Source of the DNA: Campylobacter sp.
GTDB lineage: Bacteria; Campylobacterota; Campylobacteria; Campylobacterales; Campylobacteraceae
Assembly: GCA_022775765.1 (NCBI GenBank)
Contig: JALFKC010000070.1
Location: 1-36,772 of the forward strand
Direction of reading: 5' to 3'
Length of the DNA stretch: 36,772 nt
Shown here: positions 7,919 through 36,772 of the stretch, piece after piece
Layout: every line of letters starts with the position of its first letter
Position numbering within the stretch: the stretch's first letter is position 1
Notes under the pieces: generated by a model
What the model saw: the letters and a program-made list of their open reading frames with translations, nothing else
Database searches by the model: none
What the model was told of the DNA's origin: nothing
Position numbers and translations under genes: made by a program

Positions 7919-8920
7919 TTATAACAAAATTTCAGCGAGTTTTTTATACGAATTTATCCGTTTATCGTGGTAAAAAATCGGCGAATATGCCATAACTTCA
8001 TCGAAATTATATTTTTGTATCTCATCTTCTAAAATGCTTGCGACATACTCTTTTGTTCCTTTGATAAAAAATCTCTTGTGATATTTGTAGTTAATCATCG
8101 CTTGTTGAGCCTGAGTAAATTTAAAATCTTTCAAATTCTCTGGATCTTTTATGTAGTAAGGTTGCTCTAAGCTTAGCGACCAAAACATAAGCTCAATCGG
8201 CTTTGCTAAAAAGTCCGCTTCTTCCTTGCTATCAGCGATAACTATCATATAACTTGACATCACTTCAGGCTTATCAAAAAACTCGCTTGGGATGAAATTT
8301 CGCCTATAATTTTCAAAGACAATCGGCGGTGTTTCTACACCAAAAAACTTAGCAAAACTATATCCTAATCCCATTTTTGCTGCTGCTAGGGCTGACTGAC
8401 CTGATGAACCTAACATCCAAGGGCTAGGAAGTGAGCTAGTGTGAGTTGGGATGGCATTTACGCCCTTATAGCGTCTATCCAAAACAGGTTCATCTTTAAA
8501 ATAGGCTAAAATTTGCTCTATTTTCTCATAAAGTTCATCCATCATCACTTCTCTGCCTTCGCTTAAGGCGATTATACTTTTTGCGTCGCCACCAGGGGCT
8601 CTGCCAAGGCCGATATCAACTCTATTTGGTGCTAATGAAATCAAAGTTTTGAAATTTTCAGCGATTTTAAGTGGCGAATAGTGCATTATCATCGTCCCAC
8701 CGCTTCCAAGCCTGATTTTATCAGTGATTGCACTAAAATACGCTATCAAAAGCTCGGGCGAAGTGCTAGTGTGGGGGTTTATGTTGTGGTGTTCTGAAAA
8801 CCAATACCTACAAAAGCCTAGATTTTCGGCCACTTTTACCATATCTTTTAGCCTTGCAAAGACGCTATCTGTGCTTTCGCCTTCGTTTCTTGTAACTAAA
8901 TCGTGTATGCTTACTCTCAT
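7919..8920 (-). CDS. LLM-class flavin-dependent oxidoreductase
   Basis: 333 residues, typical of the bacterial luciferase-like TIM-barrel family that uses reduced FMN. Family blocks seen are CRYWFSEHHN (about 37-46), the TSPELLIAYFSAITDKIRLG segment with GSGG following, HYSPLKIAENFK, and NRVDIGLGRAPGGD. This is the MsnO8/YhbW-like branch with unknown substrate. An AAAGGAGA Shine-Dalgarno precedes the ATG. It lies upstream of pyrG on the same strand and divergent from the cyd operon. The specific reaction cannot be inferred from the sequence. Confidence 0.88.
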   Translation of the reverse strand: MRVSIHDLVTRNEGESTDSVFARLKDMVKVAENLGFCRYWFSEHHNINPHTSTSPELLIAYFSAITDKIRLGSGGTMIMHYSPLKIAENFKTLISLAPNRVDIGLGRAPGGDAKSIIALSEGREVMMDELYEKIEQILAYFKDEPVLDRRYKGVNAIPTHTSSLPSPWMLGSSGQSALAAAKMGLGYSFAKFFGVETPPIVFENYRRNFIPSEFFDKPEVMSSYMIVIADSKEEADFLAKPIELMFWSLSLEQPYYIKDPENLKDFKFTQAQQAMINYKYHKRFFIKGTKEYVASILEDEIQKYNFDEVMAYSPIFYHDKRINSYKKLAEILL

Positions 8921-29837: not shown

Positions 29838-30881
29838 GTGGAGTATATATTTTATAAATCATCTTCAAAACAAAAAATAGTAGAAAACGATTCAGTCATA
29901 AATAATATAATTGAGCCTTTTATTAGTTTTGATAGGCTATTAGATTTAAGCTATACAAATGTCTATCACAAAAGAGCCTTAAATCTAAAAGCTACTGTTT
30001 TATCAACTATAGATGAGACAAATTTAAATGAGTTTTTACCATCAAATATAAACGAAACTGAGTTTTTAAAAGGTTTTGTATATAATTTAGAGTTATTTGG
30101 AACTGCAGCTATTGAAAAAGCTGGAAAAATGCTATATCTTCTACCTACTCAAGAACTTAGGATTTCAAAAGATTATAAAATTTACCAAAAAACAAACTCT
30201 AAAATAACTCCACTAGATGGCTTTTATCTAAAATATCACAGCTCTAAGTCCCGCTATTATGGTGAGCCTGACTATTTAGATTGTATAAATGCTATCCTTT
30301 TAAACTCTAAAGCCGATACCTATAACAACACCTTTTTTGATAATGGTGCAAGACCTGATATAGCTATAATCTTTGAAAACTCAGAACCATCAAAAGAGCA
30401 AATTTCAGCTTTCAAAGAGTTTTTTAGCAAGGATTTTAAAGGGGTTAATAATGCTCATAAAGCCCTTCTTGTCTTTGGAAATAACGGCGTTAATGACTCT
30501 AATGCTAAAATAAGATTTGAAAAACTTGGTGGGGTAGATGATTTAAGTTTTAAAAAGCTTAAAAATGTAGTTAGAGATGAGATAGTTGCAGCTCATGGCG
30601 TGCCTCCGCGTTTAGTTGGAGTAGTGCAAGGAAATGGTCTTGGTGGAAGTGGTGAGCTAATGGGGCAACTTCATCAATTTAATGAGCTTGTCATAAAGCC
30701 TAAGATTGAGACAATTGAGTATTTTTTCAATGAAATTTTAGGCGTAAAACTAAGCTTAAAAGCTATTGATGTAACAAACTTTAAAGATGATAGCACAATT
30801 ATAACCTCTTTAGTTCAAAATGGCATAGTAAGCATTGATGAAGCAAGAGATTTGCTTGGTTGGCAAAAAAATATAGGCTAA
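29838..30881 (+). CDS. phage portal protein, PBSX/P2 gpQ family
   Basis: 347 residues, GTG start after AAAAAGGGG. Typical portal blocks are present: KRALNLKATVLSTI near the start, YYGEPDYLDCINAILLNSKA, TFFDNGARPDIAIIF, and HGVPPRLVGVVQGNGLGGSG followed by LHQFNELVIKPKIETIEYFF. The portal is the dodecameric ring through which DNA enters. It is on the plus strand with terminase, divergent from scaffold and capsid as in P2. Confidence 0.88.
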   Translation: MEYIFYKSSSKQKIVENDSVINNIIEPFISFDRLLDLSYTNVYHKRALNLKATVLSTIDETNLNEFLPSNINETEFLKGFVYNLELFGTAAIEKAGKMLYLLPTQELRISKDYKIYQKTNSKITPLDGFYLKYHSSKSRYYGEPDYLDCINAILLNSKADTYNNTFFDNGARPDIAIIFENSEPSKEQISAFKEFFSKDFKGVNNAHKALLVFGNNGVNDSNAKIRFEKLGGVDDLSFKKLKNVVRDEIVAAHGVPPRLVGVVQGNGLGGSGELMGQLHQFNELVIKPKIETIEYFFNEILGVKLSLKAIDVTNFKDDSTIITSLVQNGIVSIDEARDLLGWQKNIG

Positions 30882-30883
30882 AA

Positions 30884-32440
30884 ATGGCATACTCAAAAAA
30901 GACTAAAGATTTAATCTTAAATCTACTAAAATCAGGGCTAACTCAAAGCGAATTAGCTAAAGAGTATAAAATCAACCCTTCAACTATAAACCGCTGGGCT
31001 AAAGAGCTAAAAAATGAAGATGAAATTTTAACTATAGATAATATAAAATCTCAAATCAAAGAGCTAAGTAAAGGTAAGAGCTCTGATAGCAAAGCAAAGC
31101 AAATAGCAATGCTTAGTGCAAGTTTAGTTAGATTAGATGGTGAAAAAAAGAAAAAGGCTAAACCTAAACCAAAACCGCTTATTGCTATGAATGCTGACTA
31201 TGAGAGTTTAAAAGAAAAAGCATTAAAAGAGGGTGGGTTGTTTAACTATCAAAAAGAGTTTTTAAACGATAACTCTCAGTTTCGCATTGTTTTAAAAGCA
31301 AGGCAAATAGGCTTTTCTTATGTAAGTGGGCTAGATGCTCTTTTAGGAGCTGTTGCAGGTAGGGATCAGCTATTTTTAAGTGCTAGTGAAGAACAAGCTA
31401 GAATTTTAATGAACTATATGAGTGGTTGGGCTAAAAAACTGGGCATTTCTTTTATTAAAGATAGCGATTTTGAAAAGAGTTTAGAAAATGGTGCAGTCAT
31501 AAAAGTGATGGCTCATAACTTTAGAACCGTGCAAGGATTTAGCGGTGATATCTGGATGGATGAGTTTGCATGGTATCCAAACCAAAAGAGAATTTTTACC
31601 GTATTTGTTCCTACTATAGGTGCAATTAAAGGACGCTTAACTATCCTTTCAACCCCATTTGAAGAGCACTCTTTATTTCATGAGCTTTTTAGTGATGAGC
31701 TTAAATACTATGTCTTTAGCCGTCATAAAATCGATATCTATAAGGCGATGGAAGATGGACTAGAGTTTGACCTTGAGACGATGAAGTCTTTATTTGACGC
31801 TGATACTTGGGCTAGTTGCTATGAGTGCATTTTTATAGATGATGAGAGTGCATTAATGAGTATTGAGCTGATTAAGAGTTGCGTTGATTATAATTTCTCA
31901 TTTTTTACCCCAAAAAGCAAAGAGAGTTTATATCTTGGTTATGATATCGGTAGGATTAAGGATAGATCAGCCTTAGCTGGGATAATTACTAATAAAGATA
32001 AATTTGACCTTGCTATTTTAAACACTTACGCTAAGACTAAATTTAATGATCAGTATGATGAGATAAAAAATCATCTGTTAACTTATGAAAACTCGGTTTT
32101 AAATATAGATAAAACTGGAATTGGGCTAAATTTAGCTGAAAATTTATATGATGGCTTTGGCTCTCGCGTAAAGGGAGTATGGTTTAGTGCGGCTTCAAAA
32201 GAGCAGATGGCATTAAATCTAAAAAAACTCTTTGAAGATAAGAAAATTAGAATACCAAATGATCCTGTTTTAATCGCTGATATTCACTCAATCAAAAGAA
32301 GTGCTGGGGCTAAAAGCTTTAAGTATGATAGTCCTAGAAATGAAAACGGACACGCTGATAGGTTTTGGGCGCTAGCTTTGGCAGCTTTGCATATCCAAAG
32401 CGTAAAGGTGCTAAGAAGCGGTAAAGCAATTATTATTTAA
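30884..32440 (+). CDS. terminase large subunit (P2 gpP-like) with N-terminal HTH
   Basis: 518 residues from the ATG at 30884, two bases after the portal stop; an upstream TTG at 30860 would lie inside portal and is less likely. Residues about 16-40 (SGLTQSELAKEYKINPSTIN) form a helix-turn-helix for DNA recognition. The ATPase has a Walker A-like LKARQIGFS (137-145) and Walker B IWMDEF (223-228). The nuclease part begins LGYDIGRIKDRSALAG, with D354 as a probable metal ligand. The enzyme packages DNA into proheads. No separate small terminase gene is visible nearby. Confidence 0.87.
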   Translation: MAYSKKTKDLILNLLKSGLTQSELAKEYKINPSTINRWAKELKNEDEILTIDNIKSQIKELSKGKSSDSKAKQIAMLSASLVRLDGEKKKKAKPKPKPLIAMNADYESLKEKALKEGGLFNYQKEFLNDNSQFRIVLKARQIGFSYVSGLDALLGAVAGRDQLFLSASEEQARILMNYMSGWAKKLGISFIKDSDFEKSLENGAVIKVMAHNFRTVQGFSGDIWMDEFAWYPNQKRIFTVFVPTIGAIKGRLTILSTPFEEHSLFHELFSDELKYYVFSRHKIDIYKAMEDGLEFDLETMKSLFDADTWASCYECIFIDDESALMSIELIKSCVDYNFSFFTPKSKESLYLGYDIGRIKDRSALAGIITNKDKFDLAILNTYAKTKFNDQYDEIKNHLLTYENSVLNIDKTGIGLNLAENLYDGFGSRVKGVWFSAASKEQMALNLKKLFEDKKIRIPNDPVLIADIHSIKRSAGAKSFKYDSPRNENGHADRFWALALAALHIQSVKVLRSGKAIII

Positions 32441-32450
32441 AAAGCGAAAT

Positions 32451-32476
32451 TTTTACTCTTTTGTAAAATTCTTTTT
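32451..32476 (+). terminator. weak terminator after terminase
   Basis: TTTTAC (32451-32456), loop TCTTTT, GTAAAA (32463-32468), followed by TTCTTTTTT. It overlaps the 3' end of the convergent immunity-like gene. The stem is short and AT-rich. Confidence 0.35.
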
Positions 32477-32755
32477 TATGTAGTTTAAAGCGTCTATAAA
32501 AGAGCCTACGAATTTATGCTCTTTATGGTTAAACTCGCAAATTTCATTCATTAATGGGTCATTTTTAGCTAAGTTTAACACTTCATCTTTTACATCCATA
32601 TCAAACATTCCCATTATTTTATTTTTTTCTATGCAAAGGGTGGCAAATTTGTATTTTTCGTTTTCTTTTTTTGCATATTTGCCATTCCAAATATCATAAT
32701 TTTTAATGTTTATTTGCCACTCTATATCATTTCCACTAATTTCAAACTCTCTCAT
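32453..32755 (-). CDS. candidate immunity protein to the MuF-linked toxin
   Basis: 100 residues, acidic, single small alpha/beta domain (DIEWQINIKNYDIWNGKYAK start; FNHKEHKFVGSFIDALNYIK end). I place the start at the ATG at 32755, because it overlaps the preceding TGA as ATGA; an ATG 12 bases further upstream would have a poor Shine-Dalgarno. A small gene directly after and overlapping a MuF protein with an extra C-terminal nuclease-like domain is the position of immunity genes in polymorphic toxin systems. I recognise no named immunity family, so the role is inferred from context only. Confidence 0.55.
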   Translation of the reverse strand: MREFEISGNDIEWQINIKNYDIWNGKYAKKENEKYKFATLCIEKNKIMGMFDMDVKDEVLNLAKNDPLMNEICEFNHKEHKFVGSFIDALNYIKKNFTKE

Positions 32756-33918
32756 ATCTCCCACCATGCCTTTATAATTTCTTGTTCCAAGACAAAAGCG
32801 TTATCGCTAAAATAATCTTTTCTTTTTGGTTTAAAAACAGTTATAATTCTATTGCCGTCAAAAACAAAAAAATATCCGTTTTGACTGATTGCTACACTTC
32901 TGTTTTTCTCTCCCTTTTTAGGTGCTGTTTTGACAATTGAATTTAACCCTTTTATAATGCCTTGCTTTGTTATTTCTCCGCTTTTAAGTCTTTGCTTTAA
33001 ATTATGCTCTCCATCTACTGCCTTTAAGTCCAAAACTCTCTCAACTCCCATCTTATCGATATGTTTTATCACCTCTTTACTACCCAGCTCACTCGTCATA
33101 TTCATCTTTACGCCATCATATTCATATTCTTTGGCATAAACCGGAACTATCATAGTTCTGCAGTGGAAGTGGTATGGCGGTAAGCCAAAGTTTTTAGGTA
33201 GTTTATCGCTTCTTCCGTTGTATGCCTTGCTAGCCCAAATAGCGGCGTTTTTCTTTTCACTCATATTTTTTGCATTTAGTAGTTTTTTAGCCTGAGCGTC
33301 TAAATGCTCTACTGGTATAAGGCGTCCGTGCATACTTCTACAAATTTCACTGGTTCTACTATCCATTCTAGCTACAACTTTAAAGTATTTTACAGTCTGG
33401 CTTCTATCTAAAATGGCAGTTAAATTTCTATTTTGGTTAATGATATTATCAGCCACGCCTTCAAAGTAACTCTCACTTCCTTTTAGGGTAGAGTTTAATT
33501 CACTTTTTAATCTATCAGCTAAATCTTTTCTAGCTAGTTTTCCACTCATTACATCCTTAACTGCATTTTTTACTCTATCTTGCAGATTTGAGTTATACTC
33601 ATTTCTTAGCCAGTAAAAGCTATCATCGATTAGTTTTATAGCCTCTTCATCTAAATTATCAAAGCCAACTTTTACTCTGCTATCAAGTTTTTTGCGGTTT
33701 AGCTTAAAAGACACTGCAAGGCTTTCCTTATCTATTTTATGCTCTTTTATACCAAGAGTGGCTATTTTTGAGTTTAAAAGAGCTAAAAAACTCTTCTCAT
33801 CTAAACCAAAATTTTCATAAGCAAAAACTATCAGTTCGTTAAAGCTCTCTTTTATATCTTTAATGCAACTTATTGCAAATTTAGCCACTATCTCATCTAT
33901 AAACTCATCTAAACTCAT
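32752..33918 (-). CDS. MuF head morphogenesis protein with C-terminal BECR-like toxin domain
   Basis: 388 residues from the ATG at 33918, chosen because AAAAGG lies five bases before it; an ATG at 33981 would give 409 residues but lacks a Shine-Dalgarno and overlaps the previous gene. The MuF domain shows DSRTSEICRSMHGRLIPVEH (about 186-205) and GLPPYHFHCRTMIVPVY (about 245-261). After a linker, the last ~110 residues (GEHNLKQRLKSGEITKQGII with H305, then RSVAISQNGYFFVFDGNRII and TVFKP) fit the barnase/EndoU/colicin E5/RelE-like (BECR) nuclease pattern of MuF polymorphic toxins. The toxin would be injected or released with the virion; the downstream gene may protect the lysogen. Confidence 0.7.
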   Translation of the reverse strand: MSLDEFIDEIVAKFAISCIKDIKESFNELIVFAYENFGLDEKSFLALLNSKIATLGIKEHKIDKESLAVSFKLNRKKLDSRVKVGFDNLDEEAIKLIDDSFYWLRNEYNSNLQDRVKNAVKDVMSGKLARKDLADRLKSELNSTLKGSESYFEGVADNIINQNRNLTAILDRSQTVKYFKVVARMDSRTSEICRSMHGRLIPVEHLDAQAKKLLNAKNMSEKKNAAIWASKAYNGRSDKLPKNFGLPPYHFHCRTMIVPVYAKEYEYDGVKMNMTSELGSKEVIKHIDKMGVERVLDLKAVDGEHNLKQRLKSGEITKQGIIKGLNSIVKTAPKKGEKNRSVAISQNGYFFVFDGNRIITVFKPKRKDYFSDNAFVLEQEIIKAWWEI

Positions 33919-33958
33919 TTTAGCCTTTTTTTGCTTAATTAGACTTTTTAAGATACCA

Positions 33959-34126
33959 CTATTTGACTTTAAAATTCTCATTTTTTACATCTTTTTCAAA
34001 TTTTATTTTTTCAGTAGTGTGAAATATGCATCCACACCTCTCACACTTCCTAACTCTTATAACTTCAAAGCTTTTTATGGTTGCTACTACTTTGGTTTTT
34101 TCATTTAAGCATTTAGGGCAAATCAT
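33959..34126 (-). CDS. Ogr/Delta-like zinc-ribbon protein, candidate late activator
   Basis: 55 residues. It reads MICPKCLNEKTKVVATIKSF, then EVIRVRKCERCGCIFHTTEK and a basic tail. Two CxxC pairs (C3/C6 and C28/C31, with C33 nearby) can bind zinc; the CPxC ... R..KC..CGxxFxTxE order resembles the 72-residue P2 Ogr and P4 Delta late activators and also the N-terminus of NrdR. An AGGA Shine-Dalgarno precedes the ATG. It sits between gemA and MuF. The P2-like divergent head region with a dyad supports the Ogr reading; Mu Com-like function is an alternative. Confidence 0.6.
   Translation of the reverse strand: MICPKCLNEKTKVVATIKSFEVIRVRKCERCGCIFHTTEKIKFEKDVKNENFKVK
33974..33988 (-). repeat. copy of the 15-bp prophage word
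   Basis: Exact GTAAAAAATGAGAAT on the minus strand near the end of the zinc-ribbon gene, encoding VKNEN there. Confidence 0.45.
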
Positions 34127-34128
34127 TT

Positions 34129-34593
34129 TTATTTCCTATAAAATTTACACATTTTTTCTAAGCCTGTTATAGCTTTTTTAGCATCACTTGAAAGGATATT
34201 TTTAAGTTGGCTCTCTAGTCTTATAATTATACTGCACTGCTTAGCTACCCATCTTACAAGCCTTTCATCGCTAAAATTTAGTCTTTTTGCTAGGCTTTTT
34301 AAGTAGTTATATTGAGACAAAGTTATCTTTTTATCATCTTTTTTAACTAGCTTAGAGTTTTTAACTAAATTTCTACCTAAAATATCAGGCTCACTCTTTT
34401 TGAAATCTCCATTTATTAGCATATCAAGGGCTAGTTTTAACTCATTTATGCTTAAATTTGCAGATGAACTAACTCCAAATCTTATCTCAAGCCACATCTC
34501 CCAAGCATCGTTTTCCCTTAAGAGTTTATACTCACTATTTAGATGAATTCTCTTAAGTAAGTTGTTTCTTAAAACTCTTTGTTTCTCAGTCAT
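34129..34593 (-). CDS. gemA: GemA-like regulatory protein (Mu gp16 family)
   Basis: 154 residues from the ATG at 34593, which overlaps the previous stop as ATGA and has AAAGGGG just upstream. The C-terminal block KITLSQYNYLKSLAKRLNFS ... LVRWVAKQCSII, and WEMWLEIRFGVSSSANLS near the start, match the GemA/DUF1018 family of Mu-like phages. Mu GemA alters host gene expression and DNA topology; the exact activity here is unknown. It supports assignment of the early region to a transposable phage. Confidence 0.8.
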   Translation of the reverse strand: MTEKQRVLRNNLLKRIHLNSEYKLLRENDAWEMWLEIRFGVSSSANLSINELKLALDMLINGDFKKSEPDILGRNLVKNSKLVKKDDKKITLSQYNYLKSLAKRLNFSDERLVRWVAKQCSIIIRLESQLKNILSSDAKKAITGLEKMCKFYRK

Positions 34594-34811
34594 ATTAGCC
34601 CCTTTTTCCATAGCTCACTAGCTAAAATAGCTCTACTTATACCAGCACAACGACTCATCTTAGATATATTTATTCGCCCGTTTTTAAACCTGTAAAAGTC
34701 TAAGTCATAATTTAAAGCATTATCTAGCCTTGCTTTAAATTTAGCCTTTTTACGCTCATGTAATAGCTCAAGATGAATTCTTTGCTTAGTGCTCATTTTA
34801 CTTTTTATCAT
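34590..34811 (-). CDS. small basic phage protein, possible DNA-binding
   Basis: 73 residues, strongly basic. The N-terminal half is helical (TKQRIHLELLHERKKAKFKA), and the C-terminal RINISKMSRCAGISRAILAS has the spacing of a helix-turn-helix. AAGG lies seven bases before the ATG. It is translationally coupled to gemA by ATGA. It is not assigned to a family; a small regulator is plausible. Confidence 0.5.
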   Translation of the reverse strand: MIKSKMSTKQRIHLELLHERKKAKFKARLDNALNYDLDFYRFKNGRINISKMSRCAGISRAILASELWKKGLI

Positions 34812-34867
34812 TTTAAAACCTTAATCAAGGGCTTATAAAAGCCCTTTGTTAAAGCTTTACAAAAAAC

Positions 34868-35068
34868 TTACCTTACTTCACTCCCTTTTAACTCTTCTGC
34901 CCGTTCTTTAACAAGCTCCCAAAACTCATCTTTTTCAAAAGCTGTTTTTAATTTTTCTTCAACTCCTTCTATCTTTAAAATTAAAATTGCAAACAAGTCT
35001 GACATATCTATAAAAATATCCTTTAAACTTCCATTAATATCTACTTCTCCATTATCTATCTTTATCAT
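34868..35068 (-). CDS. small acidic phage protein
   Basis: 66 residues, acidic, with a start of MIKIDNGEVDINGSLKDIFI and a helical C-terminal part rich in Glu and Lys. An AAGGAT Shine-Dalgarno precedes the ATG. It lies in the early operon between DUF3164 and the small basic gene. Family not recognised; no membrane segment or cysteine motif. Confidence 0.5.
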   Translation of the reverse strand: MIKIDNGEVDINGSLKDIFIDMSDLFAILILKIEGVEEKLKTAFEKDEFWELVKERAEELKGSEVR

Positions 35069-35081
35069 TTTTTATCCTTTC

Positions 35082-35705
35082 TTAAAGTCCTGCTATATCT
35101 AAAACTAAGCTTTTAATCGCCCCATCAACCTTGCCACCATCACGCTCCTTAAAGCGTATATAGCTCTTTGTCCCTACTATCTCTACAGCTTCGTCTATCA
35201 TCTTCATAGCCTCAGTCCATTTTGGATTAGTTATAGGATATTGTTTTAGGCTAAGCACCATCTTTGCATCAACTTTGCCGTTTTTAACATCAAAAGCTCT
35301 AGTTATTAGAGTTCTTATCTCAGCGTCTGCGTTTTCAGTCTTTTCATCTAAATACTCATCGATCTTCTCTTTTGCAAGAGCAAGTTTTTGATCGAAACTG
35401 ATTTGCTTAGCGATTTGGATTTGCACCTCTTTTGAGCCATTAAAGCTCTTTAGAGTAACAGAGCCTGTTTTAGAGTTTTCAAGCTTATCCATATTGTAGT
35501 TTTGTCTTAAAAGATCTATAAAGTCATAGCACTCCTTATACGCCATCTCTTTAAATTCACGCATTACTTTTTGTAGCTCTTTAGCCTTTTCTAAAAGCTT
35601 CTCAACCACTTCATCTTCAAGCTGTTTGTCTATAGAGATCATATCCTTATGGATAAAATTTCCCTCTTTGTTTTGCCAAAAGCCTTTCTCATCTAGCTTT
35701 GCCAT
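35082..35705 (-). CDS. DUF3164-family phage protein
   Basis: 207 residues. The start DEKGFWQNKEGNFIHKDMIS and SIDKQLEDEVVEKLLEKAKE, central SVTLKSFNGSKEVQIQIAKQ, and end SYIRFKERDGGKVDGAIKSL match DUF3164, a protein of unknown function found in the early region of Mu-like phages. AAGGAT precedes the ATG. A possible short reading frame overlaps the start. Its presence with GemA is a good marker of a transposable-phage early block. Confidence 0.75.
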   Translation of the reverse strand: MAKLDEKGFWQNKEGNFIHKDMISIDKQLEDEVVEKLLEKAKELQKVMREFKEMAYKECYDFIDLLRQNYNMDKLENSKTGSVTLKSFNGSKEVQIQIAKQISFDQKLALAKEKIDEYLDEKTENADAEIRTLITRAFDVKNGKVDAKMVLSLKQYPITNPKWTEAMKMIDEAVEIVGTKSYIRFKERDGGKVDGAIKSLVLDIAGL

Positions 35706-35820
35706 CTTTATCCTTTCTAAAAATGTATTTTTTCATAAATTTTAGGCTATTTACATAGCCATACTTTAGGACTATGGGTAGATGCTCTTTGCTTTTTTTC
35801 TTTATCTTAAATCCACCCAC
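35689..35820 (-). CDS. possible small basic protein overlapping the DUF3164 start
   Basis: An open frame of 43 residues with a GTG start (GFKIKKKSKEHLPIVLKYGY and a basic tail) fills the 126-bp gap between the DUF4406-like and DUF3164 genes and overlaps the latter by 17 bases. An AAAGG lies 12 bases before the GTG, which is too far for a good start. It may be chance, since the region would otherwise be unusually empty for this phage. Confidence 0.25.
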   Translation of the reverse strand: MGGFKIKKKSKEHLPIVLKYGYVNSLKFMKKYIFRKDKDGKAR

Positions 35821-35831
35821 GCCAAACGCCT

Positions 35832-36179
35832 TTACTCTTCAAAAAAACCTATTTCGCTTATGCCTAGCTCCTTTGCATACTCCCTTTCAGCTCTCATCCC
35901 AGCACTATATGCACTACTTGGATGGCTAGAAAAGTATACATAAGAACAAACGCTAAGTAGTTCAAGTCCAGCTGTTAAAAGGGTCTTTCTATCACTATTT
36001 TCATCAAACAGCTCACCCCACATTAAAATGGGGCTAATAGGTATATACCCAGCTTCTTTTACCCTTTTGCACTCTTTTAATGCTACTTCTTTGGCTATCT
36101 TAGCTCTGTTTTCTTCGCTACATCTAAGCCCAGCGTAAGGGGTAGCAACATAAACTAGTCTTGCCGTTCTTTTACTCAT
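35832..36179 (-). CDS. DUF4406-like nucleoside 2-deoxyribosyltransferase-fold protein
   Basis: 115 residues. LVYVATPYAGLRCSEENRAK at the start, a middle AGYIPISPILMWGELFDENS, and YSAGMRAEREYAKELGI near the end fit the DUF4406/DUF1937-type branch of the nucleoside deoxyribosyltransferase superfamily. Such folds bind nucleotides, NAD or deoxyribonucleosides. The catalytic glutamate of classical enzymes corresponds to the E in RAEREYAK. An AAGGAG Shine-Dalgarno precedes the ATG. A role in nucleotide metabolism or in handling host NAD/nucleotide signals is possible but not shown. Confidence 0.65.
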   Translation of the reverse strand: MSKRTARLVYVATPYAGLRCSEENRAKIAKEVALKECKRVKEAGYIPISPILMWGELFDENSDRKTLLTAGLELLSVCSYVYFSSHPSSAYSAGMRAEREYAKELGISEIGFFEE

Positions 36180-36240
36180 CTCTCTCCTTTCTATCTTTAT
36201 GTTCTTTTAACGGGGTAGCAAAGCCATCCCTAATAGGTTT

Positions 36241-36254
36241 AAGTTTTAAAACTT
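36241..36254. promoter_or_regulatory. 14-bp palindrome in the early operon
   Basis: AAGTTTTAAAACTT, a perfect palindrome in the 77-bp gap between two early genes. It could be an operator or a weak processing site; AT-only content makes chance possible. Confidence 0.2.
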
Positions 36255-36256
36255 AT

Positions 36257-36586
36257 TCAAGCCCTAACTCTAGGGCTTTGATAAGCTTTAAGTACCTTTT
36301 TAAGCTCTTTTTCGTCAATCTTTTTAACTAGTTTTAAAAAGATAGAAAAGCTCTTATCCATTTTAGAATAGATACTTAAATCCACTAAAATTTCATCATC
36401 TCTAAAGCCTCTAATTAGTTCCATAACATCAAAAATATCATCAAAAGCTATAAGTCTAAATGAAAGAGTAAGGCTACTTTTTTGTAAATTTGGATATAAA
36501 CTCACCCCAAATTCATCATCTATCAACTTATCAAGGCTTTTTAACTCATCACTAAAATATTTAGTGGCTAACTCTTTATTTTCCAT
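36257..36586 (-). CDS. uncharacterised phage early protein
   Basis: 109 residues from the ATG at 36586, chosen because GGAG lies six bases upstream; a GTG at 36598 would add four residues and overlap the preceding gene further. Soluble, alpha/beta: ELKSLDKLIDDEFGVSLYPN, SSLTLSFRLIAFDDIFDVME, then a Lys/Glu-rich helix near the end. Family not recognised. It lies in the early operon before the DUF4406-like gene. Confidence 0.5.
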   Translation of the reverse strand: MENKELATKYFSDELKSLDKLIDDEFGVSLYPNLQKSSLTLSFRLIAFDDIFDVMELIRGFRDDEILVDLSIYSKMDKSFSIFLKLVKKIDEKELKKVLKAYQSPRVRA

Positions 36587-36588
36587 AT

Positions 36589-36772
36589 CTAGCTCCACAC
36601 TCTACCTAAGCCAAACACAAAATTTGGCTTTAAATTCTTAGCTTTATCATCACCAAATAACTTAGGATAAATTTGGCATTTAGAAGTTTGACTTTCGGTA
36701 TTTAAAAGCTTCTTTTTCTTAATGCTCTTTCCGATTAAATTCCCATCTTTTGTAAAACCCACTTCAAACCCA
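36589..36772 (-). CDS. early phage gene, 3' end only
   Basis: An open frame without stops covers the last 184 bases and ends at TAG 36589-36591. The visible 60 residues include GFEVGFTKDGNLIGKSIKKK and KLFGDDKAKNLKPNFVFGLG. The start lies outside the window. Its stop directly precedes the start of the next gene. Family not recognised from this fragment. Confidence 0.55.
   Translation of the reverse strand, partial: GFEVGFTKDGNLIGKSIKKKKLLNTESQTSKCQIYPKLFGDDKAKNLKPNFVFGLGRVWS

What the first reader, a model, noticed from the sequence alone, without database searches (positions are those of the whole stretch)
32453..33918. MuF head protein carrying a nuclease-type toxin domain, followed by an overlapping candidate immunity gene
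The MuF domain is followed by about 110 extra residues with the order H-x-x-K..RGEI-like, strand, NGYFFV.D..RIITVF, matching the BECR nuclease pattern known from MuF polymorphic toxins of temperate phages. The next gene overlaps by ATGA, is small and acidic, and has no recognisable phage structural role. Together they look like a phage-borne toxin-immunity module, possibly a new pair in Campylobacter.
Basis: partly seen in the sequence, partly recalled or inferred. Interest (0 to 1): 0.75.

Follow-up and report, generated by a model that had tools for sequence, protein, structure and literature searches.

The report
Swappable phage-head RNase toxin with immunity
A Campylobacter prophage carries a head protein ending in a predicted RNA-cutting toxin, followed by a small gene that very probably protects the host from it; relatives of this phage exchange the toxin and its protector as one cassette, like rival weapons with matching shields.

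Summary
The MuF gene is 32752..33981 (-), 409 aa, and the next gene overlaps it. No Pfam model recognises residues 299-409. AlphaFold2 models them well (pLDDT 88.5), and the 14 best VIA-align entries (eight proteins) are toxin-type ribonucleases of the BECR kind, though at modest Z (6.4-3.7). The expected active-site pair is conserved: His326 in 40 of 42 relatives, Thr381 as T/S in 37 and N in 5. Of 57 distinct MuF-toxin ORFs, 55 are followed by one small, mostly acidic protein family. Toxin and small-protein distances track each other beyond what the MuF core explains (partial r 0.64). Some phages with near-identical flanks differ in a block of about 500 bp, from just after a conserved HIDKxGVER motif into the small gene. 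Small genes also occur alone or in tandem without toxin. This is a MuF polymorphic-toxin/immunity module, a known kind; I found no paper on this toxin family, immunity family or cassette swapping in the open-licence papers searched. Toxicity, RNase activity and virion delivery are untested. A link between orphan modules and CRISPR arrays is only suggestive.

The parts
32752..33981 (-). MuF minor head protein with C-terminal BECR-type toxin domain, 409 aa
   Evidence: ORF; MuF matches; relatives
33088..33981 (-). MuF portion, residues 1-298
   Evidence: PHROG 115 / TIGR01641 / PF04233 stretches; alignment
33037..33063 (-). Conserved HIDKMGVER motif (residues 307-315) at the junction between constant and variable parts
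   Evidence: A4 column counts; identity drops just after it in phage pairs L102/L106 and L106/L108
32752..33087 (-). Toxin domain, residues 299-409; candidate catalytic pair His326 (33004-33006) and Thr381 (32839-32841)
   Evidence: model; structure comparison; conservation
32453..32767 (-). Candidate immunity protein, 104 aa (or 100 aa from ATG 32755), overlapping the toxin gene
   Evidence: ORF; family; linkage 55 of 57; model
32512..33036 (-). Approximate extent of the swappable cassette: toxin after the motif plus most of the immunity gene, up to its conserved F-x-G-S-F-I-D-A-L end
   Evidence: mapped by alignment from other phages; no exchange seen in the window itself
29838..30881 (+). 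Portal protein (context)
   Evidence: PF04860
30860..32440 (+). Terminase large subunit, convergent with the module (context)
   Evidence: PF03237 / PF17289
33959..34126 (-). Small NrdR-like zinc ribbon protein upstream of MuF (context)
   Evidence: PF22811
34129..34611 (-). GemA of Mu-like phages (context)
   Evidence: PF06252

Best explanation
It is a MuF polymorphic toxin with its cognate immunity gene. The MuF part builds the toxin into the phage head, as proposed for other MuF toxins (inferred). The last ~110 residues are a metal-independent BECR-fold ribonuclease that would cut RNA, most likely tRNA or ribosome-associated RNA, in a cell that receives the protein (fold shown by model; activity and target inferred). 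The overlapping small gene encodes a protein that binds and blocks that one toxin allele, so lysogens and producing cells survive and cells with a different allele do not (inferred from linkage and co-divergence). Phages trade the two as a cassette by homologous recombination between constant flanks: the MuF core/HIDKxGVER side and the conserved 3' end of the immunity gene plus downstream DNA (pattern shown by sequence comparison; recombination is its reading). Cells or elements can keep immunity genes alone (shown as gene content; benefit inferred).
For: Model pLDDT 88.5, pTM 0.80, helices then four strands. VIA-align's first 14 entries, eight distinct proteins, are toxin-type RNases, Z 6.4 down to 3.7 (5i4r CdiA-CT NC101 Z 6.4, 2.8 A, 76 aligned; 7m5f CdiA Serratia 5.8; 1tfo colicin D 5.6; 3u97 BrnT 5.0; 7vd7 4.7; 2otr HP0892 4.5; 3ao9 4.2; 2kc8 RelE 3.9); unrelated rows start at 3.6. 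The two best viral-library matches are named 'Colicin D' (E 0.007) and 'Phage MuF C-terminal domain' (E 0.02). His326 in 40 of 42 and Thr381 as T35/N5/S2. Immunity-family gene after 55 of 57 distinct MuF-toxin ORFs. Toxin and immunity distances: r 0.78, partial on MuF core 0.64, 0 of 2000 permutations, 47 loci. L016/L043, two places in one genome: core 100%, toxin 37%, immunity 35%; reverse case L016/L100: core 57%, toxin 85%. L106/L108: DNA 95-100% over the ~460 bp up to the motif, 48-70% from about +20 to +500, then 98-100% for some 700 bp; L102/L106 shows the same block, with a 75-85% dip upstream and a second divergent stretch from about +860. Three tandem immunity genes with no toxin in G061. 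Immunity ORFs intact behind broken toxin frames in L118, L121 and L096.
Against: No toxicity, RNase activity or toxin-immunity contact is tested. Z of 6.4 is modest: the tool notes that models without a clear match had typical best Z of 7 to 8 against a larger set, and that Z under 8 may mean only a common arrangement. Foldseek gave no E <= 0.001 in PDB, where the top rows were mainly WD40-type, nor in the viral library. No Pfam family matched more than one of 17 toxin members, none convincingly, and there is no profile match to phage Mu gp30. Five of 42 relatives have Asn at position 381. Toxin net charge is positive in only 40 of 47 and immunity net charge negative in 44 of 47. The immunity model has no match above Z 2.8. 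Close homologues keep the same toxin superfamily, so swapping is between alleles rather than unrelated toxins. Not every pair has clean seams: in L106/L112 identity falls already 160 bp before the motif and stays low for over a kilobase downstream.
Confidence: 0.8

Rival explanations
1. Toxin and immunity are real, but the toxin acts inside the lysogen or at infection as a superinfection-exclusion or abortive-infection device and is not delivered to competitors by virions.
For: MuF lies in the same-strand run with GemA, the zinc ribbon and DUF3164 genes, convergent with terminase and portal, unlike phage Mu where gp30 follows the portal gene; this could mean early expression. Some orphan small genes lie near genes that look like defence genes by eye.
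Against: The toxin is fused to a head protein; in published MuF toxins the MuF part is hypothesised to target the capsid (PMC11699363, passages; PMC5512222, passages).
Confidence: 0.2
2. The C-terminal domain is a catalytically dead BECR fold with a structural or RNA-binding role in the head, as proposed for the phage Mu MuF-C domain, and the small protein is an assembly chaperone.
For: Iyer et al. call the Mu gp30 C-terminal domain an inactive PBECR domain (PMC5512222, passages). The domain is present in 18 of 18 full-length family homologues aligned. A chaperone could also co-diverge.
Against: The candidate catalytic residues are kept in nearly all relatives. A structural part would not be expected to swap as a cassette between near-identical phages, nor would a chaperone be expected in tandem arrays without phage genes.
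Confidence: 0.1
3. A type II toxin-antitoxin pair (RelE/BrnT-like) that has been fused to a head gene and maintains the prophage.
For: BrnT, RelE and a Salmonella toxin-antitoxin entry are among the structural matches; small overlapping gene.
Against: The small protein follows the toxin, shows no DNA-binding family match and its model matched no antitoxin in the listed rows (which excludes nothing); allele-by-allele co-divergence and swapping is typical of immunity proteins.
Confidence: 0.07

Closest known systems
MuF polymorphic toxins (Jamet et al. 2017, PMC5576092, abstract and passages seen; Zhang et al. 2012, PMC3482391, passages seen)
   Same: N-terminal MuF domain in a prophage packaging region, C-terminal toxin domain, small ORF below 150 aa directly downstream. 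The 2012 tables already list MuF as carrier of BECR toxins (Tox-Barnase, Tox-Colicin D, Ntox50).
   Different: The 2017 study found MuF toxins mostly in Firmicutes and left C-terminal extensions in phages of Proteobacteria (incl. Ct_MAD) undecided; whether this domain is among them was not tested. This toxin and immunity family match no Pfam model. Cassette exchange of the kind shown here did not appear in the passages seen.
PBECR / MuF-C domains (Iyer et al. 2017, PMC5512222, passages seen)
   Same: BECR fold fused to MuF, with His in the N-terminal helix region and Thr/Ser in strand 4.
   Different: No Pfam MuF_C or PBECR match, and no profile match to Mu gp30; here a small immunity-like gene follows.
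CdiA-CT of E. coli NC101 / CdiI, and colicin D
   Same: Among the best structural matches; toxin-immunity pairs. That CdiA-CT NC101 is a BECR-type tRNase is recalled; colicin D is listed as BECR in PMC3482391.
   Different: Different carrier (CdiA or colicin); 12-14% sequence identity over the aligned part; their immunity proteins were not compared with this one.
Bxa (Bacteroides, PMC11699363, passages seen) and Apk2 (PMC12226406, abstract seen)
   Same: Experimentally tested MuF-fused toxins with adjacent immunity genes.
   Different: Those are an ADP-ribosyltransferase and a (p)ppApp synthetase; this one is a predicted RNase.

Membership tests
MuF polymorphic toxins | N-terminal MuF domain | tested here: met
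   PHROG 115 E 2e-16, TIGR01641 E 9e-9 (35.7 bits, cut-off 39.65), PF04233 E 5e-5 (24.3 bits, cut-off 29.6): below both curated cut-offs; the G(L/M)PPYH core is conserved
MuF polymorphic toxins | Encoded in a temperate phage near packaging genes | tested here: met
   Portal, terminase, protease, GemA, tape measure and a sub-threshold capsid match in the window; host genes up to about 13.1 kb
MuF polymorphic toxins | Variable C-terminal domain behind a conserved N-terminal part | tested here: met
   Core identity 86-100% with toxin identity 24-65% in 18 of the 1081 pairs of 47 loci
MuF polymorphic toxins | Small immunity ORF directly downstream | tested here: met
   55 of 57
MuF polymorphic toxins | C-terminal domain is toxic and neutralised by the downstream protein | not testable with these tools
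   needs expression assays
[quoted passage not shown]
   Helices 21-26, 30-36, 41-48 then strands 51-57, 64-68, 73-77, 80-85; the 14 best VIA-align entries are toxin-type RNases, at Z 6.4 to 3.7
BECR-fold ribonucleases | His in the N-terminal helix region and Ser/Thr in strand 4 | tested here: met
   H28 lies two residues before helix 30-36; T83 in strand 80-85; H 40/42, T/S 37/42, N 5/42; spatial proximity not measured
BECR-fold ribonucleases | Ribonuclease activity | not testable with these tools
   needs an in vitro assay
Pfam MuF_C (PF18819) and PBECR families | Match to the curated profile | tested here: not met
   No PBECR or MuF_C hit for 17 members at E <= 1, with HMMER's filters dropping most matches above 0.1; MuF_C gives no match in the window's genome; hhalign to Mu gp30 probability 0.1. 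The claim is therefore BECR-like fold, not membership in these families
Type II toxin-antitoxin | Antitoxin with DNA-binding domain, autoregulation | tested here: inconclusive
   No DNA-binding family match for the small protein; regulation not testable

The most novel reading that the evidence does not exclude
Mu-like phages of Campylobacterales carry an allelic set of head-borne RNase toxins that is reshuffled by homologous recombination at two fixed seams, one of them inside the immunity gene, so that one crossover pair changes weapon and shield together. Bacterial hosts capture and stack the immunity genes, often beside CRISPR loci, as a shield against incoming phages armed with those toxins: a protein-based defence matched to virion-delivered toxins.
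Probability: 0.25. Interest if true: 0.75.

Novelty: new member of a known kind. Interest (0 to 1): 0.52.

Why it matters
MuF toxins were proposed as phage-borne polymorphic toxins, but who is inhibited, and whether alleles are exchanged as in CDI and Rhs systems, is open as far as the papers seen go. Here some pairs of near-identical phages differ mainly in one cassette of about 500 bp, a natural experiment that makes allele-specific immunity directly testable. It also suggests functions for two proteins annotated as 'hypothetical' in the two C. fetus records read (WP_010403312.1 and WP_010403314.1), adds an immunity family without a structural match so far, and raises the question why orphan modules lie next to CRISPR loci.

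Tried and rejected
Pfam, NCBIfam, PADLOC and PDB sequence searches gave no convincing family for the toxin domain or the small protein; PHROGs placed the MuF protein among head proteins and gave only a weak unknown-function match for the small one. Foldseek against PDB was uninformative for the toxin and for the immunity protein; VIA-align found no match above Z 2.8 for the immunity protein, which does not show a new fold. The single-sequence scan of viral contigs found no relative; the alignment query did. Phage records gave 18 matches of 20.6-33.3% identity, none covering 80% of the query. MuF_C (PF18819): 1 of 150 genomes in the phylum, below cut-off, none in G000. Membership in Pfam PBECR/MuF_C was rejected; the BECR-like fold was kept.

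CRISPR link, followed and left as a lead. First set: arrays in 8 of 21 regions around orphan or truncated modules, 1 of 21 around full modules, 0 of 28 arbitrarily chosen regions. Adding seven later regions (five classed orphan/truncated, two full) gives 9 of 26, 1 of 23 and 0 of 28 (Fisher 0.0006 against control, 0.012 against full modules). Six of the nine regions had been seen before the test and prompted it. Without them it is 3 of 20, too few to claim; I computed no test for that. Of these three, G131 has a 4-copy repeat about 9.6 kb away. Classing was mine: L061 (G009), with a complete MuF start but an early-ending toxin frame, was put with the full modules; L251 (G196), cut by a contig end, too; G548 was classed as truncated after its 235-aa ORF was read, when its array was already known. 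The lineage grouping (6 of 21) was a rough count.

Dropped rows: one search left out L096, L118, L121 (toxin frame broken), L098, L099 (other C-terminus), L097, L133, L135 (core incomplete) and exact duplicates, and added nine genome-search loci (window included). Alignments A4 and A5 left out L096, L098, L099, L118, L121 and duplicates. One search counted toxin ORFs as distinct if their last 60 residues differ, so close relatives count separately; ORF starts are mechanical.

Full report
What is there. On the minus strand, 33981→32752 encodes a 409-aa protein with a MuF minor head domain at about residues 140-285: PHROG 115 E 2e-16, TIGR01641 E 9e-9 and PF04233 E 5e-5, the last two below their curated cut-offs. 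The rest of the window shows host genes up to about 13.1 kb and then tail, tape measure, capsid (sub-threshold match), protease, portal, terminase, GemA and DUF3164 genes, so the pair lies in a Mu-like prophage. A genome of the same genus (G070) has contigs of the same lengths (76514 and 43959) as Campylobacter portucalensis FMV-PI01. The pair occurs once in the window's own genome.

The domain. Residues 299-409 match no Pfam family convincingly. With 42 aligned sequences (the window and relatives from named or IMG/VR contigs), AlphaFold2 gives pLDDT 88.5 and pTM 0.80: a beta-hairpin (the HIDKMGVER stretch), three helices, then four strands. VIA-align 2 ranks 14 entries of toxin-type ribonucleases first, eight distinct proteins: CdiA-CT NC101 5i4r (Z 6.4, rmsd 2.8, 76 aligned) and 5i4q, CdiA Serratia 7m5f (5.8), colicin D 1tfo (5.6) and 5znm (5.4), BrnT 3u97 (5.0), a Salmonella toxin-antitoxin entry 7vd7 (4.7), HP0892 2otr (4.5), RelE 2kc8 (3.9), and five colicin E5-type entries (4.2-3.7). 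Unrelated rows follow at 3.6 and below. PMC3482391 (passages) lists colicin D, colicin E5 and RelE as BECR fold; that the others are too is recalled. These Z-scores are modest, and the tool warns that a best Z of 7 to 8 is common for models without a clear match; the weight lies in the consistency of the list and its coverage of the domain. In the viral library nothing reached E 0.001, but the two best matches are named 'Colicin D' (E 0.007) and 'Phage MuF C-terminal domain-containing protein' (E 0.02). [quoted passage not shown] The distance between the two in the model was not measured.

The partner gene. In 153 genomes of the family, 29 hold a MuF relative and 18 a relative of the small protein by single-sequence search. 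With profiles, the toxin is found in 16 of 298 genomes of the order, and the small protein in 29 of 298 of the class and 24 of 398 of the order; these sets overlap. Among 75 distinct toxin ORFs in the loci examined, 57 are 240 aa or longer, and 55 of these are followed by a small-protein family member; 54 overlap by 8-88 nt and one lies 175 nt beyond a toxin ORF that ends early. The two exceptions, L006 and L007, are near-identical phages with an 81-aa gene in the same place. In the two C. fetus plasmid records read, both proteins are annotated 'hypothetical'.

Swapping. Over 47 loci, toxin and immunity distances correlate at r 0.78, and at 0.64 after removing the MuF core, against 0.29 for core-immunity after removing toxin; 0 of 2000 permutations reach the observed partial value. 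Eighteen of 1081 pairs have cores at least 85% identical and toxins at most 65% identical. In genome G002, two places share a 100% identical core while toxins are 37% and immunity proteins 35% identical (L016, L043); L106 and L112 share a 100% core with toxin 43% and immunity 21%. The reverse also occurs: L016 and L100 have cores 57% but toxins 85% identical. DNA comparison of seven pairs shows the seams in two of them clearly. L106 against L108 is 95-100% identical over the ~460 bp up to the motif, 48-70% from about +20 to +500, and 98-100% for the next ~700 bp. L102 against L106 has the same block, with a 75-85% dip upstream and a second divergent stretch from about +860. The 5' seam falls at HIDKxGVER and the 3' seam inside the immunity gene, at its conserved F-x-G-T-F-I-D-A-L-x-Y-I end. 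The other five pairs also diverge at or near the motif but lack the clean return: in L106/L112 identity falls from 160 bp before the motif and stays low for over a kilobase, and in L107/L112 it returns (about 80-90%) only some 860 bp downstream.

Orphans. In G061 three different immunity genes lie in tandem beside a RadA-like gene (by eye) with no toxin. G221 has two in tandem, and G310, G494 and G510 have single orphan genes. In G009 (L017, L034) and G061 (L022, L058) two immunity genes follow a broken toxin. The toxin frame is broken but the immunity ORF intact in L118, L121 and L096. Immunity genes without a toxin (polyimmunity loci) are published for polymorphic toxin systems (PMC3482391 and PMC11699363, passages).

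Comparison with the known. MuF polymorphic toxins are established (PMC5576092, abstract and passages seen): that study found most in Firmicutes, found small downstream ORFs after 89.4% of 191 MuF toxin genes, and left C-terminal extensions of MuF proteins in phages of Proteobacteria undecided. Zhang et al. 2012 (PMC3482391, passages) already list BECR toxins carried by MuF. PBECR-MuF fusions, including an inactive one in phage Mu, are described in PMC5512222 (passages). Bxa (PMC11699363, passages) and Apk2 (PMC12226406, abstract) are tested MuF toxins with immunity proteins. My searches for MuF with Campylobacter, toxin and immunity, for 'MuF toxin' and for related CRISPR terms showed no title or abstract on this pair; most hits were seen only as listings, and only open-licence papers were searched. 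The verdict is a new member of a known kind, with clear natural evidence of cassette exchange.

What is shown and what is inferred. Shown: the genes, the linkage, the co-divergence, the seams in two pairs, the orphans, and a confident model with a BECR-like order of elements. Inferred: RNase activity, target, toxicity, inhibition by the small protein, packaging in the virion, and the benefit to phage or host.

Noticed in passing
L059, L060, L063, L064, L176, L177, L180, L181, L249: Orphan or truncated toxin/immunity modules lie near CRISPR arrays or cas genes in several genomes: in G002 the MuF fragment begins exactly at a CRISPR repeat in two places; a G158 remnant and the array are essentially adjacent; a G310 orphan lies about 280 bp from an array of 144 repeat copies; a G446 fragment lies beside a Cas9-like gene (by eye). 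Arrays in 9 of 26 such regions (some up to 9.6 kb away), 1 of 23 full modules, 0 of 28 arbitrarily chosen regions; six of the nine were known before the test.
   Followed up: partly
L060 spacer at 8273-8307: A CRISPR spacer of G002 matches 35 of 35 bases in L108, a phage contig of this MuF-toxin group, upstream of its MuF gene.
   Followed up: no
window 32453-36762 and 29838-32440: MuF and immunity lie in the same-strand run with GemA, a zinc ribbon and DUF3164, convergent with terminase and portal; in phage Mu gp30 directly follows the portal gene. MuF may be expressed with early or middle genes in this group.
   Followed up: no
L098 5437-6837, L099 642-1886: MuF cores related to this one (41% and 28% identity) in Tibeticola and a Spirochaetes MAG carry different C-termini, each followed by a different small ORF.
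   Followed up: no
L246 9667-9996 and L248 9751-10080 (reverse complement coordinates): Orphan immunity genes in G510 and G494 without MuF; in G510 the next gene encodes a 676-aa protein that looks like an ATP-binding protein of the kind seen in defence systems (by eye).
   Followed up: no
L179 9589-10242: A 217-aa protein with a weak immunity-family match (E about 1e-7) near a DNA cytosine methyltransferase-like gene in G290, possibly a restriction-modification island (by eye).
   Followed up: no
window 35832-36179: Small nucleoside 2-deoxyribosyltransferase-like protein (DUF7768, PHROG 355) upstream of GemA.
   Followed up: no
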